A DNA stretch of 64,000 bases from Candidatus Obscuribacterales bacterium (GTDB taxonomy: Bacteria > Cyanobacteriota > Vampirovibrionia > Obscuribacterales > Obscuribacteraceae), in assembly GCA_020054205.1 (NCBI GenBank), contig JAGVLS010000018.1:1-64000 (forward strand), written 5' to 3'. The notes beneath the pieces are model-generated. The model was not told the origin of the DNA, did not search any database, and saw nothing but the letters and a program-made list of their open reading frames with translations. This document shows positions 47,192-54,600 of this stretch, in pieces (position 1 is the stretch's first letter; each line of letters starts with the position of its first letter). A program made the translations under genes and the position numbers.

Positions 47192-48043
47192 ATGTCAGAA
47201 ATGGATTTATCACTACTGCCTATGCTCTCCTCTCTCAAGCAAAAATCACAATCTTTTTTGCCTAATAATTTAAGACGAATTATTATTGAACAATCAAAAA
47301 GAGCTGGTGTAGGGCATATTGGTTCTGCTTTAAGTATTGTTGAAATTATTACTGCTTTATATGGACATGTCTTGAATGTCAGTGGTATTCGTGATCCAAA
47401 TAGAGATCGTTTTATCTTGTCTAAAGGACATGCTGCTCTTGCTTTGTATGGAGCTTTTCACTTGAAAGGTTGGATAAGCAAAGAAGAACTAGATACTTTT
47501 TGTGGCAATGGTAGCAAATTGGGTGTACATCCAGAACACATATTGCCTCATGTTGATTTTGCAACTGGCTCATTAGGACAAGGACTTAGTTTTGGTGTAG
47601 GGGCGGCCCTTGCTGCTCATCATGAAAAAGCAAATAGGCAAGTATATGTGTTATTGAGCGATGCGGAAATGAATGAAGGGGCTGTTTGGGAAGCAATTAT
47701 GTTTGCGCGCCAACACAAATTATCTAATCTTTGCGCTATTTTGGATGCTAATGGACAGCAAGCGTTTGGTTATACACGAGATGTTCTTGATCAAACTAAT
47801 ATTTCTGAACGCTTGCAATCTTTTGGTTGGCAGGTAAATTCTGTAGATGGTCATAATGTAAATGAATTAGTAAAAACAATTCATAGTCCAATTAATTTTG
47901 GGGGAGCACCACGTTTTGTCATTGCCCGTACTGTTTTTGGTAAAGGAGTGTCATTTATGGAAAACAAAATTAAATGGCATTACAGCCCATTATCAGATCA
48001 TGAATATAAAGAAGCCATGGCGGAGATTGATAAACATTCATGA
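47192..48043 (+). CDS. Transketolase, N-terminal (ThDP-binding) subunit
   Basis: 283 codons; only the pyrophosphate-binding half of transketolase. GHIGSALSIVEIITALY, ILSKGHAALALYGAF, GSLGQGLSFGVGAALA and the cofactor motif LLSDAEMNEG...DANG are visible (SDAE replaces the usual GDGE). Its partner follows with a 4-nt overlap. Split transketolases occur in archaea and in some sugar or secondary-metabolite pathways. As first gene of a glycan locus, it probably makes a special ketose or transfers a two-carbon unit to a sugar precursor. Confidence 0.93.
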   Translation: MSEMDLSLLPMLSSLKQKSQSFLPNNLRRIIIEQSKRAGVGHIGSALSIVEIITALYGHVLNVSGIRDPNRDRFILSKGHAALALYGAFHLKGWISKEELDTFCGNGSKLGVHPEHILPHVDFATGSLGQGLSFGVGAALAAHHEKANRQVYVLLSDAEMNEGAVWEAIMFARQHKLSNLCAILDANGQQAFGYTRDVLDQTNISERLQSFGWQVNSVDGHNVNELVKTIHSPINFGGAPRFVIARTVFGKGVSFMENKIKWHYSPLSDHEYKEAMAEIDKHS

Positions 48044-48999
48044 GAACGGCATTTGTCAAAACATTAGTTGAAATTGCCGAGCGTGATAAACGTGTATTTA
48101 TGCTCACGGGTGATCTTGGTTATATGGCACTTGAGCCTTTTATGGATCGTTTCCCTGATCGTTTTATCAACGTTGGTGTGGCAGAACAAAATATGATTGG
48201 CATTGCAACTGGGCTGGCTGAATCTGGATATATTCCTTTTGCTTATTCTATTGTTACTTTTGCTACATTAAGACCTTATGAGTTTATTCGCAATGGACCA
48301 GTTTTACATAATTTACCTGTAAGAATTGTAGGTGTTGGTGGTGGTTTGGAATATGGACATAATGGTGCTAGTCATTGGGGCTTGGAAGATGTCGCTGTTA
48401 TGCGTGTACAACCTAATATGACCGTTATTGCTCCGGCTGATCATGAACAAACAAAAAAAGCAGTTGAAAATACGTGGGATATAAGCGGTCCTATATATTA
48501 TCGACTTGGTAAAGACGATAAAACATTAGTCACAGGTTTAAATGGTAAATTTACTTTTGGACAATTAGATATTGTCCAGGAAGGCAAAGATGTTTTGCTT
48601 ATTTCTATGGGAGCAATTAGCGCTGACACCGCACAAGCAATTGAAGAGCTTAATTTGCGTGGTTTGTCTTGTGGATTTGCAATAGCCTCTACTATAAATC
48701 CGCCACCTGTAGAACTGGACAAAGTATTGTCAAATTATAAAGCCGTCATTACTGTAGAAGCTCACTATAAAGTGGGTGGAATTGGATCACTTGTTGCAGA
48801 GACCATTGCAGAAAAAGCTTTGAATACATTATTAGTGCGCATGGCGGTGGATGGAATTCCTGATGGAATAACTGGCAGTCAGGCGTTTATGTATAGCTGT
48901 CATGGTTTGTCTAAAGAAAATATTGTTAACACGGTTCTTATGACAGCCGATAAGCTGGAAGCGAAAAATCGAGAGAGGCAATCGTGTCCAGTCAACTAA
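48040..48999 (+). CDS. Transketolase, C-terminal subunit
   Basis: 319 codons: pyrimidine-binding and C-terminal domains. The catalytic Glu lies in INVGVAEQNM. GGGLEYGHNGASHWGLEDVAVMR and TVIAPADHEQ are typical, and the C-terminal domain has AVITVEAHYKVGGIGSLVAE. It forms the active heterotetramer with the preceding subunit. The downstream GT2 gene starts 16 nt before its stop. Confidence 0.93.
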   Translation: MRTAFVKTLVEIAERDKRVFMLTGDLGYMALEPFMDRFPDRFINVGVAEQNMIGIATGLAESGYIPFAYSIVTFATLRPYEFIRNGPVLHNLPVRIVGVGGGLEYGHNGASHWGLEDVAVMRVQPNMTVIAPADHEQTKKAVENTWDISGPIYYRLGKDDKTLVTGLNGKFTFGQLDIVQEGKDVLLISMGAISADTAQAIEELNLRGLSCGFAIASTINPPPVELDKVLSNYKAVITVEAHYKVGGIGSLVAETIAEKALNTLLVRMAVDGIPDGITGSQAFMYSCHGLSKENIVNTVLMTADKLEAKNRERQSCPVN

Positions 49000-49673
49000 T
49001 ATCTATTATTTTGCCTATACATAATCAGGCGGATCATATAAAGCCAATAGTTGAAGACTATCTTGCTCAGCTAGCTAATTTGCCTGGAAAATTTGAAATT
49101 ATATTAGTAAGCAATGCTAGCACTGATAATACTTATAATGTAGCTTGTGAATTAGCTAATAAATATAATGGCCAAATAAAAACAATTGATACACCTATTG
49201 CTGGCTGGGGGCATGCAGTTAAATTGGGGCTTAAAGAAGCAAAAGGAGATTTGTTGTGTTATACAAATTCTGCTCGTACAAGCTCTGAAATATTGAAACT
49301 CATATTGATTTATGCTCTTTCTTACAGCAATGTAGTAATTAAAGCTAATAGAAAAATTCGCGATAATTTCTTAAGACGTCTTGGCTCGCTTATTTATAAC
49401 CTTGAATGTCGTGCCTTATTTGATCTTCCTAATTGGGATATTAATGGTACGCCAAAAGTATTTCCACGTTCATTCAATAAATTATTGGACTTATCACGTG
49501 ATGATGATCTAATTGATGCCGAATTCAATGCTATTTGCCGTAAAGAAGGCTATCAAATTTTAGAAGTACCTGTTTTATCAACACGTAGACACAGTGGTAA
49601 ATCAACAACTAATTTTAAATCAGCACTAAAAATGTACTGGGGGGCATATAAGTTATGGCAAAACATAACATAA
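48984..49673 (+). CDS. Family 2 glycosyltransferase lacking DxD
   Basis: 229 codons from GTG 48984, with GAGAGAGG upstream. GT-A fold of the dolichol-phosphate-mannosyltransferase type (ISIILPIHNQADHI, EIILVSNASTDNT, GWGHAVKLGLKEAKGDLL). Where the metal-binding DxD normally sits, it reads CYTNSARTS (residues 92-100), so nucleotide-sugar binding must differ or be lost. The C-terminal part (DDLIDAEFNAICRKEGY, RRHSGKSTTNF) is intact. No membrane helices. It probably acts on a lipid- or protein-linked acceptor in this locus. Confidence 0.85.
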   Translation: MSSQLISIILPIHNQADHIKPIVEDYLAQLANLPGKFEIILVSNASTDNTYNVACELANKYNGQIKTIDTPIAGWGHAVKLGLKEAKGDLLCYTNSARTSSEILKLILIYALSYSNVVIKANRKIRDNFLRRLGSLIYNLECRALFDLPNWDINGTPKVFPRSFNKLLDLSRDDDLIDAEFNAICRKEGYQILEVPVLSTRRHSGKSTTNFKSALKMYWGAYKLWQNIT

Positions 49674-50866
49674 CTCACCCAGAAAATCTAAATGATTTGT
49701 GGATGCATCATCATGCTCAATGGCGTGATACAGCCCAAGTTACCAGTCAATGGCAAGAAGCTAATGAAATAGATGCTGGTTTATTGCGGTATAAAACAAA
49801 AGGTGAGTTTTGGGATATTGTTGATTCTTTAAAAACTACAATAATAATTACTCGTGAATATGAACATTTAATTCTGGCTCTTACTTGTTTAAACAATGAG
49901 CCACATGTTTCTTATATGCCAATGCCGCACCCATCAGGAATAGCTATAGATAGAAAAAAAGGGATTGTGCATATAGCAAGCACACGCAATCCAAATCAAA
50001 TATTTGATTTAATGCCTGTTACTGATTTTACTCCGAGAGCGGATGTCAAAATGGAAAATGAATTTGATCATCCACTTATACCTGTGCAATCACGTTTTTA
50101 TCCTGGTTGTCTTTATATGCATGATTTGGCAATGATTGATAACAAATTATATGCTAATGCTGTGGGACAAAATGCTATTGTCGAATTTCAAACTAATAAT
50201 AGTTATAAAACTATTTGGTGGCCTAAATGTATTGAGGCAAAGAATAAGACTCATTTTGATCAAAACTATATTCAGCTCAATTCTATTGCGGCTGGTTCTA
50301 ATATCAAAAATTCATTTTTTTCAGCCTCTTCTGATAGCATTTCATCATTAAGACCTGGCCACAAAAATTATCCAGTAGATAAAAAAGGCGTGATTTTTTC
50401 TGGCGCAACTAGACAAGTTATTGGACGTGGACTGACAAGACCACATTCGGCACGTCTTACAAAAAATAAAATCTGGGTAGATAATAGTGGTTATGGTGAG
50501 CTTGGTTATATTGAAGATGGTTGGTTTGAAGCAATTGCTAAATTACCGGGTTGGACACGCGGTTTGTGTTTTGTTGAAAATATAGCCTTTGTTGGTACTT
50601 CACAAGTGATACCGCGCTTCAAGCAATATGCTCCAGGATTGGATGTAGATAAAAGTGTTTGTGGCATTCATGCTGTCGATATCAAAACTGGCAAAATTAT
50701 TGGTAGTTTGACTTGGGCTGCCGGTAATCAAATTTTTGCTATAGATGTTTTACCAAGGAGTTTTTCGTCTGGTTTTCCCTTCGTTGTGGCAAGACGTCAG
50801 GAGAAGGAAAAATTGCTTTTTTACACATTTGCTATTAAGGACAATAAAAAGGAGGTCCGCGCATGA
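49655..50866 (+). CDS. TIGR03032/DUF4915-family protein
   Basis: 403 codons. WMHHHAQWRDTAQV, MPHPSGIAIDRKKGIVHIASTRNPNQ, RFYPGCLYMHDLAMID, LTRPHSARL and LWVDNSGYGELGYIEDG-type strings fit this family, which folds as a beta propeller and is usually found in loci with sulfotransferases or glycosyltransferases. No signal peptide, so it is probably cytosolic. Enzymatic role not established. Overlaps neighbours by 19 and 4 nt. Confidence 0.88.
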   Translation: MAKHNITHPENLNDLWMHHHAQWRDTAQVTSQWQEANEIDAGLLRYKTKGEFWDIVDSLKTTIIITREYEHLILALTCLNNEPHVSYMPMPHPSGIAIDRKKGIVHIASTRNPNQIFDLMPVTDFTPRADVKMENEFDHPLIPVQSRFYPGCLYMHDLAMIDNKLYANAVGQNAIVEFQTNNSYKTIWWPKCIEAKNKTHFDQNYIQLNSIAAGSNIKNSFFSASSDSISSLRPGHKNYPVDKKGVIFSGATRQVIGRGLTRPHSARLTKNKIWVDNSGYGELGYIEDGWFEAIAKLPGWTRGLCFVENIAFVGTSQVIPRFKQYAPGLDVDKSVCGIHAVDIKTGKIIGSLTWAAGNQIFAIDVLPRSFSSGFPFVVARRQEKEKLLFYTFAIKDNKKEVRA

Positions 50867-51810
50867 GCGCACAGTTTAAATTTTTGATGTTGGGTGCTAT
50901 GTATGAAAATGGTGGTAATACTACTCATCGTTTTTTGGATGGACATCCTCAAATGTTTGTTTATCCTTTTGAATCTCAGCCAGGTACAAGACTGGTAAAT
51001 GATCATTTGAGCTCTACGTTTCCAGTTAAGTACAGATGGCCAGTTTTCTCTCTTGAGGCTACAGCCGAGCAAGACTATCAAGCCATAATTGATGAAGAAG
51101 GCAAAGTAAGGTCAAGAACTCCTCATGTGAGCAAATTTCGCCATATGCCTTTTGAATTGGATGATAACGAGCGAAAAGCCATCTATACTCGTCTTATAAA
51201 AGAAAGTGGTAGATCAAGAGCTAATAATATGGCTGCTTTTTTCAAAGCTACATTTGAAGCTTGGAAAGACTACAATCGTACAGGTAAAGAACAATTTTAT
51301 GTTGGCTATAGCCCAATTATTGTTGTTGATGCAGATAAAATACTTGATGATTATAAAGATGCTCATTTTTTACATCTTGTTCGCAATCCTTGGTCTGCTT
51401 ATGCTGATACAAAGAAACGCCCAGTGCCATTGTCTTTGAAAGACTATATGTTGGCTTGGACATTGAATCAATATCATGCTCTTTTATTTCAAAAGAAATA
51501 TCCAGGCAGAATGCATATAATAAGAACAGAAGATGTTATGGCTGATCCGTATAAAACACTTTCTCAACTTTGTAAGAATCTTGGACTAGAAGCTAGTGAA
51601 TCTTTAAAGCAACCAAGTTGGAATGGTAAAGTTCTTGATGAAGTGTATCCTTGGGGTACAATTCGCAAAGCCACACCAGAAGCTAATTTAGCAACGGCAC
51701 TTGAACTTTCCAAAGAAGAGCAAGAACAAATACGATTAGCTACTTGGCAGTATCTAGAAGTGTTTAATTACAGCAATTTTCTAGACGGTAAGGTATTAGC
51801 TCGCGTATGA
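50863..51810 (+). CDS. PAPS-dependent sulfotransferase
   Basis: 315 codons. The 5'-phosphosulfate loop near the start is MYENGGNTTHRFLDGHPQM, matching the GxxxTTxxRxLDxHP type. The 3'-phosphate motif is LHLVRNPWSAYADTKKR (RNPxxxxxS-like). GRMHIIRTEDVMADPYKTL is also typical. Transfers sulfate from PAPS to a hydroxyl, here most likely of the sugar or glycan made by the locus. No APS kinase or sulfurylase is in the window. Confidence 0.88.
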   Translation: MSAQFKFLMLGAMYENGGNTTHRFLDGHPQMFVYPFESQPGTRLVNDHLSSTFPVKYRWPVFSLEATAEQDYQAIIDEEGKVRSRTPHVSKFRHMPFELDDNERKAIYTRLIKESGRSRANNMAAFFKATFEAWKDYNRTGKEQFYVGYSPIIVVDADKILDDYKDAHFLHLVRNPWSAYADTKKRPVPLSLKDYMLAWTLNQYHALLFQKKYPGRMHIIRTEDVMADPYKTLSQLCKNLGLEASESLKQPSWNGKVLDEVYPWGTIRKATPEANLATALELSKEEQEQIRLATWQYLEVFNYSNFLDGKVLARV

Positions 51811-52736
51811 AGCGCGTTTTAATAACTGGAGCTGCTGGGTTTGTTGGTGCAAACCTTGCTAGACGTTTATTACATGATGGTCATTCTGTTTGTTTGGTAA
51901 TTAAGCCAGATTCTCATACCTGGCGTATTGATTCCATAAAAAATGATTGTCAGATAAGCAAAATTTCTTTAATTGATTTTGAAGCTGTGAACAACCAAAT
52001 TGTTAGTTATAGACCAGAATGGATTTTCCATTTGGCTGTTCATGGTGCTTATTCCTGGCAAAATAATTGGCAAGAAATGATTTCAGTAAATATAAACGGT
52101 ACTATGAATGTGGTGGAGGCGGCACTGAAAGTTGGTTTTGAAGCATTGATAAATACTGGCTCGTCATCCGAGTATGGTTTTAAAGATCATGCTCCATTGG
52201 AAGATGAGCCGGTTGAACCAAATAGTTATTATGCTGTAACTAAAGTAGCAGCAACAAATTATTGTCGCTTTATTGCCCATGATCGTCATGTTAATATCAG
52301 TACACTCAGGCTTTATTCTGCTTATGGTCCTTACGAAGATCCAAATCGTTTAATGCCAACTTTAATACGGCAAGGTATGGAAGGTCATTTGCCGCCGCTC
52401 GTTGATCCAAGTATTGCACGAGATTATATTTATATTGATGATGTGGTTGATGCTTACATAGCATCTGCAAAAAACAATAAAGAACCAGGTGCAATTTATA
52501 ATATTGGTACGGGCAAACAAACAAATATAGCTGAAATTGTAGATATTGCTAGGCAGACATTTGATATTAAAGATGAACCTAAATGGGGTTCGATGGACAA
52601 TCGCATGTGGGATACAAATGTCTGGCTTGCTAATAATGAAAAAGCAATGAAATTTTTAGGATGGTCTCCTGTTTATAATATTCAATCAGGATTTAATAAA
52701 ATGGCTAACTGCTTTAGTGTGAAGGTAAAAGGCTGA
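51807..52736 (+). CDS. NAD-dependent sugar epimerase/dehydratase
   Basis: 309 codons, extended SDR. TGAAGFVG (residues 7-14) for NAD, NTGSSSEYGF with catalytic Ser, and YYAVTKVAA with Tyr and Lys. RLYSAYGPYEDPNRLMP and RDYIYIDDVVDAYI are diagnostic of GDP/dTDP/UDP-sugar epimerases and dehydratases. Closest in feel to the GDP-mannose 4,6-dehydratase/reductase or CDP-sugar groups; exact substrate not decidable. Ends 7 nt before the membrane glycosyltransferase. Confidence 0.92.
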   Translation: MKRVLITGAAGFVGANLARRLLHDGHSVCLVIKPDSHTWRIDSIKNDCQISKISLIDFEAVNNQIVSYRPEWIFHLAVHGAYSWQNNWQEMISVNINGTMNVVEAALKVGFEALINTGSSSEYGFKDHAPLEDEPVEPNSYYAVTKVAATNYCRFIAHDRHVNISTLRLYSAYGPYEDPNRLMPTLIRQGMEGHLPPLVDPSIARDYIYIDDVVDAYIASAKNNKEPGAIYNIGTGKQTNIAEIVDIARQTFDIKDEPKWGSMDNRMWDTNVWLANNEKAMKFLGWSPVYNIQSGFNKMANCFSVKVKG

Positions 52737-52743
52737 TTGAGAT

Positions 52744-54027
52744 ATGCATAAGTCTCATTGGACAATTTTTTGCACACTGGCACTTGTTTATTTTATTAGT
52801 CGCATTATATTAGTTTTTATCATTCCTATTAGTGAAGCACCTGATGAGGGAGCACATTATTGGGTAATTCATTTCATTGACACTTGTTTTAGATTGCCAG
52901 AATATAGTGATTTACTAAAAGATCCTGCTGCTTCTTATTATGGTGCACTTTCGCCATTTGGCTATTTGATGCATATTATATTGAACTGGGTTTTGCCTTT
53001 TGACAATGTATTATTAGTCTCTCGCATTGCTAGCGTTTTAATAGGTTTATTTACAGTCTGGGCAGCATTGGCTTTAGCAATAGAAATATTTCCGCAAAAG
53101 AAAATTTATCAAATTGCTTTGCCTTTGATTGTAATATTGCATCCACAATTAGCCTTTGTTCAATCGTATACAAATAACGATAGTATGGCTTGTACTATAG
53201 CTAGTCTGGTTATTGTTATTATGGTTAGGATAATAAAATATGGCTTTAGCACTCGATGCTCTTTTATTTTAGGTATTTTGCTTGGCATTTTACTTTTAGG
53301 TAAATATTCAGCTTTTTCATTATTACCTGCTCTTGCCTTAGGCTTTATTCTTGCTCTTTGGGCTAATTCAACAACACTCACACAGTTTATTAAAGCGGCT
53401 GCTATATCTTTTGTTACTGCTCTTTCTCTTTCAATGTGGTGGTTTATTCACAACTATTATTTATTTGAGGGTGATATTTCTGGCTTGGGTACAATGATGA
53501 AATTGCACAGGATGGCATATGTAGAGCCTCCAGCATTATATAAATGGCCAATAGTTGATAATGCTTTGTGGAGACATACGGTTTTTATTAGTTTTTGGGC
53601 TTTATTTGGCAATATGAATCGATTGCTTCCAGCTTGGATGTATAAGCCTTATGCTCTTTTTCCCATAATTTCTTTTATGGGTTATTTATCGGCTTTTTTC
53701 AAACATAAGTTAAATAAGCTGTTCAATAAAGATTATCAGCATAGTTTTGCCATATGGATATTTATTCTTGCTTGTGCAATTTTAAGTTTTGTAGGTTTAG
53801 TTTTAGCTTCTGCTTCGCTTAATGCAACAGGTTCGCCTCAGGGCAGATATTTGTTTGTTGGTGAACTTGCTTTTATGGCCCTTTTATTGAAAGGATTTGA
53901 ACTTTTAGGTAATCGTCTCGGTAAAGTAATGGTAATAATTTGTATTATTTGTTTTGCCGGGCTTTTCAGCTATATGGAATTTATGTTGTATAACATTTAT
54001 GGATTTAGTTTAAATCCAATGAGATAA
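52744..54027 (+). CDS. DUF2142/GT39-like membrane glycosyltransferase
   Basis: 427 codons, about 10-11 transmembrane helices. The first periplasmic loop has EAPDEGAHYW, the conserved acidic motif of GT-C enzymes. NNDSMACTIASL and TGSPQGRYLF fit DUF2142-type proteins. It probably transfers a sugar from a polyprenyl-phosphate donor outside the inner membrane. It is the last gene of the seven-gene locus and gives the pathway an export-side transferase. Confidence 0.8.
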   Translation: MHKSHWTIFCTLALVYFISRIILVFIIPISEAPDEGAHYWVIHFIDTCFRLPEYSDLLKDPAASYYGALSPFGYLMHIILNWVLPFDNVLLVSRIASVLIGLFTVWAALALAIEIFPQKKIYQIALPLIVILHPQLAFVQSYTNNDSMACTIASLVIVIMVRIIKYGFSTRCSFILGILLGILLLGKYSAFSLLPALALGFILALWANSTTLTQFIKAAAISFVTALSLSMWWFIHNYYLFEGDISGLGTMMKLHRMAYVEPPALYKWPIVDNALWRHTVFISFWALFGNMNRLLPAWMYKPYALFPIISFMGYLSAFFKHKLNKLFNKDYQHSFAIWIFILACAILSFVGLVLASASLNATGSPQGRYLFVGELAFMALLLKGFELLGNRLGKVMVIICIICFAGLFSYMEFMLYNIYGFSLNPMR

Positions 54028-54102: not shown

Positions 54103-54600
54103 ATGATTAGGTCAGTCATGCTTAGATTAATAATAGGTGTTCTGGAAAATAGAATAAATAGGTGCTTAAAATTGCAAATCAAAATTAATAGCTTTAGTTA
54201 TGTAAGTGTTTTATTGATTGTTTTTCTGGTAATGAGTACAAATATTGTCATGGCACAAAAAGTTTCAATTGCTGCTGCAAATATAAAGCAGGTGGAAAAT
54301 GCTAAGCAAAAAAGTTTTAGCGGAAATGTTTCTTGGTATGGTGTACCTTTTCATGGACGTAAAACAGCTTCTGGCGAAATTTTTGATATGAATAAATTGA
54401 CTTCTGCGCACCTGAAATTGCCATTTTTTACAAAAGTTTTAGTAGAAGATCCCTCTACTGGCAAAACAATTATAGTAAAAGTGAATGACCGCGGTCCTTA
54501 TGTAAAAACTCGAGTTATGGATTTATCTCGAGAAGGAGCAAGACGTTTAGGAACAATACTTAGAGGTGTTGCTTATGTAGATTGTCTTGTTTTAGACTAA
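54103..54600 (+). CDS. rlpA: RlpA-like double-psi beta-barrel protein
   Basis: 165 codons; the first ATG is 54103 with 54118 as alternative. A hydrophobic segment (about residues 38-52) followed by VMAQ looks like a signal peptide with a long N-region. The DPBB domain has VSWYGVPFHGRKTASGEIFDMN, KVLVEDPSTGKTI, VKVNDRGPYVKTRVMDLS and the catalytic Asp of NDRGPY, all typical of RlpA, a septal peptidoglycan lytic transglycosylase. There is no SPOR domain. It overlaps the convergent TPR gene by 4 nt. Confidence 0.9.
   Translation: MIRSVMLRLIIGVLENRINRCLKLQIKINSFSYVSVLLIVFLVMSTNIVMAQKVSIAAANIKQVENAKQKSFSGNVSWYGVPFHGRKTASGEIFDMNKLTSAHLKLPFFTKVLVEDPSTGKTIIVKVNDRGPYVKTRVMDLSREGARRLGTILRGVAYVDCLVLD

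What the first reader, a model, noticed from the sequence alone, without database searches (positions are those of the whole stretch)
47192..54027. Sulfated-glycan locus headed by a split transketolase
Seven genes with overlaps of 4-19 nt or a 7-nt gap include both transketolase halves, a GT2 enzyme, a TIGR03032 protein, a sulfotransferase, a sugar epimerase and a GT-C membrane enzyme. A dedicated transketolase suggests an unusual ketose or branched sugar, later sulfated and transferred outside the membrane. No Wzx/Wzy or ABC exporter is present, so it may decorate a lipid or protein rather than build a polymer.
Basis: inference. Interest (0 to 1): 0.68.

Follow-up and report, generated by a model that had tools for sequence, protein, structure and literature searches.

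The report
Widespread split-transketolase sugar-building gene cassette
Six neighbouring genes in this uncultured bacterium (a two-part transketolase plus partners) recur as a set in at least eleven bacterial phyla and probably build and attach an unusual, still unknown surface sugar; the gene labelled "sulfotransferase" has lost the parts needed to use the normal sulfate donor.

Summary
The gene list and overlaps are real. The genome has a separate full-length transketolase, so the split pair is an extra, dedicated enzyme. (1) Sulfation is not supported. The "sulfotransferase" has YENGGN where PAPS enzymes have PRSGTT, and Asp where they have the 3'-phosphate-binding Ser; both changes hold in 33 of 33 homologues. 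Own genome and 15 of 28 cassette genomes searched have no clear APS kinase. (2) The GT-C gene is not part of the set; it belongs to a family present throughout the order.

The unit is a six-gene cassette: TK-N, TK-C, short GT2, TIGR03032 beta-propeller, sulfotransferase-like protein, SDR. All six occur in 29 loci from 11 phyla, 23 in identical order. TK-N/TK-C/SDR also occur alone, or with a different GT2 and a methyltransferase, so they are probably the sugar-making core. The transketolase keeps its ThDP/donor residues but has lost canonical phosphate- and acceptor-binding residues; the GT2 lacks DxD. Best model: the pair transfers a two-carbon ketol unit onto a non-standard, probably keto-sugar, acceptor; the SDR makes or reduces it; the other three transfer or tailor it. 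Product unknown. I found no paper describing the set.

The parts
47192..48043 (+). TK-N: ThDP pyrophosphate-binding half of a split transketolase (283 aa)
   Evidence: PF00456 1e-41; closest PDB hit is the C. hydrogenoformans split TK N chain, 8e-58; His42, 80, 113, 263, Asp157 and Asn187 kept in 71-74 of 74 homologues
48040..48999 (+). TK-C: pyrimidine-binding + C-terminal half of the transketolase (319 aa)
   Evidence: PF02779/PF02780; catalytic Glu49 73/73 but the canonical phosphate/acceptor-site residues replaced
48984..49673 (+). Short GT2 (229 aa), polyprenyl-phosphate-glycosyltransferase fold, no DxD motif
   Evidence: PF00535; YTN in place of DxD, N95 invariant and Y93/T94 nearly so in 32 homologues; AlphaFold pLDDT 91, best PDB matches ArnC, DPMS and GtrB
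49655..50866 (+). TIGR03032/DUF4915 protein, predicted beta-propeller, soluble (403 aa)
   Evidence: PF16261 5e-58; no PDB sequence relative; AlphaFold pLDDT 87, YWTD-type propellers among best fold matches
50863..51810 (+). Sulfotransferase-fold protein with degenerate PAPS site (315 aa)
   Evidence: PF13469 8e-12 over the C-terminal part only; YENGGN and D182 invariant in 33 homologues; canonical enzymes of the same order carry RSGTT and R-x-P-x5-S
51807..52736 (+). Extended NAD(P)-dependent SDR of the sugar-nucleotide epimerase/dehydratase/reductase type (309 aa)
   Evidence: PF01370 3e-45; GSSSEYG...Yx3K motif; found with the TK pair in most loci
52744..54027 (+). Predicted GT-C-like membrane protein; neighbour, not part of the conserved cassette
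   Evidence: no Pfam/NCBIfam match; homologues in 43 of 53 genomes of the order and a paralogue in the own genome; absent from all other cassette loci

Best explanation
47192-52736 is a horizontally mobile six-gene sugar-tailoring cassette. The two halves form a ThDP-dependent transketolase that transfers a two-carbon ketol (hydroxyacetyl) unit to an acceptor other than the usual small aldose phosphates, most likely a keto-sugar or sugar nucleotide, giving a branched or chain-extended sugar. The SDR makes the keto acceptor or reduces the product. The DxD-less GT2, the TIGR03032 beta-propeller and the sulfotransferase-fold protein then transfer or further modify this sugar on a lipid-linked intermediate or cell-surface glycan, without ordinary PAPS-dependent sulfation. 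Shown: the genes, conservation as a set, residue changes, absence of a convincing APS kinase in the own genome. Inferred: acceptor, product, order of steps, destination.
For: Six genes together in 29 loci of 11 phyla, 23 in the same order. TK-N/TK-C/SDR occur without the other three, or with another GT2 (with DxD) and a methyltransferase, and the two forms are interleaved on the TK-C tree, so the core is reused. In one genus the TK+SDR and TIGR03032+sulfotransferase-like parts lie apart yet occur in the same genomes; over the order the two co-occur in 13 of 15 genomes against 1 of 38. Own genome has a separate full-length TK. Catalytic Glu and donor-site His kept, while the residues aligned with E. 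coli H461, D469, R520 and S385 are Gly, Asn/Ala, Lys and mostly not Ser; changing S385, D469 and R520 in the laboratory moves E. coli TK away from phosphorylated acceptors (PMC5073344). GT2 model matches ArnC/GtrB/DPMS. Two actinobacterial loci carry TK-N/TK-C/SDR; the one annotated also has EryCIII-like glycosyltransferases, a DegT aminotransferase and a B12-radical-SAM protein. Split TKs are proposed to add hydroxyacetyl to keto-sugars in miharamycin and amipurimycin (PMC12247030).
Against: No product, substrate or activity known for any member. The lost phosphate-site residues also serve donor phosphate binding, so they may report a different donor rather than a different acceptor. Residue numbering relies on alignment plus remembered TK structures. 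The SDR reaction cannot be fixed from sequence. The miharamycin/amipurimycin role is itself untested and those sequences were not compared here.
Confidence: 0.5

Rival explanations
1. One reading: a sulfated glycan locus in which the sulfotransferase sulfates the transketolase-derived sugar using PAPS.
For: The gene is a Pfam Sulfotransfer_3 member above cut-off and is always next to glycosyltransferase-type genes; 13 of 28 cassette genomes searched do have APS kinase.
Against: PAPS 5'-phosphosulfate loop PRSGTT replaced by YENGGN and the 3'-phosphate Ser by Asp in 33 of 33 homologues, while canonical enzymes in the same order keep RSGTT and R-x-P-x5-S. Own genome has only a borderline P-loop hit for APS kinase and 15 of 28 cassette genomes have none. 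In the order, genomes with full-length canonical-type sulfotransferase matches have APS kinase in 9 of 11 cases, cassette-only genomes in 1 of 8.
Confidence: 0.13
2. The split transketolase simply supplies an ordinary ketose phosphate (xylulose 5-P, sedoheptulose 7-P) or erythrose 4-P as precursor for a ketose- or heptose-containing glycan.
For: Closest solved relative is an active split transketolase from C. hydrogenoformans; R2 (aligned with E. coli R358) is kept and K158 could still bind phosphate.
Against: H461- and D469-equivalent residues lost in essentially all members although the C. hydrogenoformans enzyme and the own full-length TK keep them; the own genome already has a full-length TK for such products.
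Confidence: 0.25
3. The pair is the organism's housekeeping transketolase or its DXP synthase.
For: TK-C scores 132 bits against the dxs model; the own genome lacks DXS.
Against: Full-length transketolase present on C2; DXP reductoisomerase is absent too; many relatives with the pair also have a normal DXS.
Confidence: 0.03
4. The cassette makes a diffusible specialised metabolite rather than a surface glycan.
For: TK-N/TK-C/SDR lie near macrolide-type glycosyltransferases in Saccharomonospora, with a similar layout in Amycolatopsis.
Against: The six-gene form lies among polysaccharide-type glycosyltransferases and ABC-2 exporters in relatives and no scaffold-building enzyme is conserved with it.
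Confidence: 0.09

Closest known systems
Split-gene transketolase of Carboxydothermus hydrogenoformans (6YAJ/6YAK, PMC7661550)
   Same: Two chains, PP domain on one and Pyr + C-terminal domain on the other; best PDB hits for both halves
   Different: That enzyme keeps the canonical residues aligned with H461 and D469 and is its organism's only transketolase; this family has lost them, sits in a sugar cassette and coexists with a full-length TK
Split transketolases proposed for miharamycin/amipurimycin (PMC12247030)
   Same: Split TK with an oxidoreductase in a sugar pathway; [quoted passage not shown]
   Different: Those are Streptomyces nucleoside antibiotics, untested in vitro; here the set is a six-gene cassette in 11 phyla with other partners. 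Sequences were not compared
wps-2 exopolysaccharide cluster of Actinoplanes missouriensis (PMC13390465)
   Same: Split transketolase genes inside a polysaccharide cluster
   Different: Accompanied by DegT aminotransferases and Wzx/Wzy; no TIGR03032 or sulfotransferase-like gene described in that cluster
Polyprenyl-phosphate glycosyltransferases ArnC/GtrB/DPMS
   Same: Predicted fold of the 229-aa GT2
   Different: No DxD motif and no C-terminal membrane helices
PAPS-dependent Sulfotransfer_3 enzymes
   Same: Fold and C-terminal sequence family
   Different: Both PAPS-binding motifs replaced

Membership tests
Transketolase (ThDP-dependent, split) | PP, Pyr and C-terminal domains, here on two chains | tested here: met
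Transketolase (ThDP-dependent, split) | Catalytic Glu and active-site His set | tested here: met
   E49 in 73/73; H42, H80, H113, H263 in 71-74 of 74
Transketolase (ThDP-dependent, split) | Canonical sugar-phosphate site (E. coli R358, S385, H461, R520) and acceptor Asp (D469) | tested here: not met
   R358 kept; H461 to Gly 74/74, R520 to Lys 70/74, S385 kept in only 8 of 72, D469 mostly Asn or Ala
PAPS-dependent sulfotransferase | 5'-phosphosulfate loop [RK]-[ST]-G-T-[TS] | tested here: not met
   YENGGN in 33/33; canonical controls keep it
PAPS-dependent sulfotransferase | 3'-phosphate motif R-x-P-x5-S | tested here: not met
   Asp at the Ser position in 33/33; Arg kept in 32/33
PAPS-dependent sulfotransferase | PAPS supply (APS kinase) in the genome | tested here: inconclusive
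   only a borderline P-loop hit in own genome (8e-4); missing in 15 of 28 cassette genomes; draft genomes
GT2 glycosyltransferase | GT-A fold | tested here: met
   PF00535, AlphaFold/Foldseek
GT2 glycosyltransferase | DxD metal/nucleotide-sugar motif | tested here: not met
   YTN instead; the alternative GT2 of the second cassette form keeps DxD in 27 of 28
Extended SDR, sugar-nucleotide type | Rossmann fold family and YxxxK | tested here: met
   PF01370; Y142 and K146 invariant in 59
Extended SDR, sugar-nucleotide type | Which reaction (dehydratase, epimerase, reductase) | not testable with these tools
   best NCBIfam matches far below cut-offs

The most novel reading that the evidence does not exclude
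A previously undescribed sugar-building system spread over at least eleven phyla, in which a split transketolase makes a carbon-branched sugar by ketol transfer to a keto-sugar and a sulfotransferase-fold enzyme works with a donor other than PAPS, together with a DxD-less GT2 and a beta-propeller of unknown function.
Probability: 0.3. Interest if true: 0.8.

Novelty: new variant of a known kind. Interest (0 to 1): 0.6.

Why it matters
A six-gene set kept at roughly 50-60% identity across cyanobacteria, Chloroflexota, Actinomycetota, Pseudomonadota, Omnitrophota and others, including cultured or named strains (Spirulina, Mesorhizobium, Solirubrobacter), is likely to do one definite chemical job that nobody has named. 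It would answer whether transketolases really build branched sugars by adding to ketones, which a 2025 review calls untested. It also warns that genes annotated 'sulfotransferase' in such loci should not be read as evidence for sulfated polysaccharides.

Tried and rejected
Housekeeping TK or DXS reading: rejected, a full-length TK exists and the pair coexists with DXS in relatives. GT-C gene as cassette member: rejected. PDB sequence search for the TIGR03032 and sulfotransferase-like profiles: no hits at 0.1 and 0.01; a single-sequence search of the sulfotransferase-like protein gave only weak C-terminal matches to CurM-type sulfotransferases. Fold search of the TIGR03032 model gave only generic beta-propellers. 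Viral contigs searched with the GT-C gene: nothing. Rfam on the window: nothing. Literature searches for TIGR03032 and DUF4915: no paper; transketolase + sulfotransferase clusters: only unrelated or loosely related papers. First ORF-based clustering missed genes in high-GC loci and was replaced by tblastn. Alignment attempts with mis-set starts failed.
Full report
OBSERVATION. The seven ORFs are present as described, with overlaps of 4, 16, 19, 4 and 4 nt and a 7-nt gap. Domain searches confirm both transketolase halves, a GT2 domain, DUF4915/TIGR03032, Sulfotransfer_3 and an epimerase-type SDR; the GT-C gene matches no Pfam or NCBIfam family. The window is contig C15 of a 3.3-Mb draft genome (93.7% complete) whose relatives are labelled Candidatus Melainabacteria or Obscuribacterales.

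DEDICATED TRANSKETOLASE. The genome has three Transket_pyr matches: this pair, a PDH E1-beta, and a 624-aa full-length transketolase on C2. The pair is therefore an extra enzyme. No DXS and no DXP reductoisomerase were found in the genome; since relatives with the pair also have DXS, the pair is not a replacement.

THE CONSERVED UNIT. A scan of one genome per species with TK-C gave 80 loci (this tool finds close relatives and returns at most 80, so numbers are lower bounds). tblastn of the window proteins showed all six genes TK-N, TK-C, GT2, TIGR03032, sulfotransferase-like and SDR in 29 loci (window included; L085 and L086 are near-duplicates), 23 in the same order and strand within 5.3-7.8 kb. 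They fall in Chloroflexota, Melainabacteria, Omnitrophota, Actinomycetota, Pseudomonadota, Cyanobacteriota, Acidobacteriota, Elusimicrobiota, Myxococcota, Lentisphaerota and a Riflebacteria MAG. Many are MAGs, so single phylum labels may be wrong, but named strains (Spirulina CCY15215, Mesorhizobium, Solirubrobacter) carry it too. In the two cyanobacteria the order is rearranged with extra genes between. Median pairwise identities are 49-64% and gene distances correlate between cassette genes (Spearman 0.36-0.80).

A second form has TK-N, TK-C, a different GT2 that keeps its DxD motif (27 of 28), a methyltransferase and the SDR; a minimal form has only TK-N, TK-C and SDR. On the TK-C tree the family is a supported clade apart from canonical transketolases and the forms are interleaved (21 label changes; shuffled mean 31.7), so the TK+SDR core has been combined repeatedly with different transfer genes (quick tree with long outgroup branches). 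In one genus of the order TK+SDR and TIGR03032+sulfotransferase-like lie at different places but in the same genomes. Over 53 genomes of the order the TK family and the TIGR03032/sulfotransferase-like pair co-occur in 13, occur alone in 2 and 1, and are both absent in 37 (Fisher 2e-9; genomes are related, so the p value is optimistic).

The GT-C gene does not belong. Homologues occur in 43 of 53 genomes of the order, many without the TK pair, a paralogue lies on C11, and none is found at any other cassette. It may be co-transcribed here, but that is local.

ACTIVE SITES. TK-N keeps its four His, the ThDP Asp and Asn in 71-74 of 74 homologues. TK-C keeps the catalytic Glu (73/73) and R2. Aligned to the own full-length TK, the positions I assign to E. 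coli H461, D469, R520 and S385 are Gly (74/74), Asn/Ala (31 and 30 of 74), Lys (70/74) and Ser in only 8 of 72; the C. hydrogenoformans split TK keeps H461 and D469. The E. coli numbering is from memory plus PMC7661550, PMC5073344 and PMC10787763. Directed evolution of S385, D469 and R520 moved E. coli TK away from phosphorylated acceptors, so nature appears to have changed the same sites. Because these residues may also touch donor phosphate, the change could concern the donor.

The GT2 has YTN in place of DxD, with N95 invariant in 32 homologues, no C-terminal membrane helices, and a confident model closest to ArnC, DPMS and GtrB. The TIGR03032 model is a confident beta-propeller with only generic fold matches.

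The sulfotransferase-like protein matches Sulfotransfer_3 from residue 70 on only. Its N-terminal loop reads GAMYENGGNTTHRFL where canonical enzymes of the same order read, for example, GAPRTGTTILHAIL, and its second motif reads RNPWSAYAD where they read RDPRDAVLS; E15-N19 and D182 are invariant in 33 of 33. The own genome has only a borderline P-loop match to APS kinase (8e-4), and 15 of 28 cassette genomes have none. As a control, genomes of the order with full-length canonical-type sulfotransferase matches have APS kinase in 9 of 11 cases, cassette-only genomes in 1 of 8 (Fisher 0.005). Draft-genome gaps remain possible, but motif and supply point the same way: PAPS-dependent sulfation is unlikely.

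MECHANISM. Shown: the set, its conservation, the residue changes. Inferred: the pair forms a transketolase tetramer as in C. hydrogenoformans; it transfers a hydroxyacetyl unit to a keto-sugar or sugar nucleotide; the SDR makes the keto acceptor or reduces the product; the GT2, propeller and sulfotransferase-fold protein transfer or modify the sugar. Supporting context: in Saccharomonospora TK-N/TK-C/SDR lie among EryCIII-like glycosyltransferases, a DegT aminotransferase, an aldo/keto reductase and a B12-radical-SAM protein, and Amycolatopsis has a similar layout; in Melainabacteria relatives ABC-2 exporter genes flank the cassette. Split TKs are proposed to do this reaction in miharamycin and amipurimycin but this has not been tested (PMC12247030), and an Actinoplanes polysaccharide cluster also holds a split TK (PMC13390465).

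VERDICT. Every component belongs to a known protein family; the conserved combination and the three altered active sites appear undescribed in the literature searched (open-access PMC only).

Noticed in passing
whole genome G000: No DXP synthase above cut-off, no DXP reductoisomerase and no HMG-CoA reductase found, although 46 of 53 genomes of the order have a full DXS; either assembly gaps or loss of isoprenoid synthesis.
   Followed up: partly
L021, L022 (G029:C67, G025:C556; also G021:C56:161071): A second, more distant group of split transketolases in the same order, also with altered acceptor-site residues; in L021 and L022 it sits beside a zinc-type alcohol dehydrogenase gene instead of an SDR.
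   Followed up: partly
L080 and L091: Actinomycete gene clusters (Saccharomonospora iraqiensis, Amycolatopsis rhizosphaerae) with TK-N, TK-C and SDR; L080 annotated with EryCIII-like glycosyltransferases, methyltransferases, DegT aminotransferase, FGE-sulfatase domain protein and B12-radical-SAM: an uncharacterised natural-product cluster.
   Followed up: partly
window 52744-54027: Predicted GT-C-like membrane protein family with no Pfam or NCBIfam model, found in 43 of 53 genomes of the order.
   Followed up: partly
many phyla: Split transketolases are common in mesophilic bacteria, contrary to a 2020 statement that they are restricted to archaea and thermophiles (PMC7661550).
   Followed up: yes
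window 54103-54600: RlpA-like DPBB protein gene 75 nt downstream on the same strand; relation to the locus unknown.
   Followed up: no
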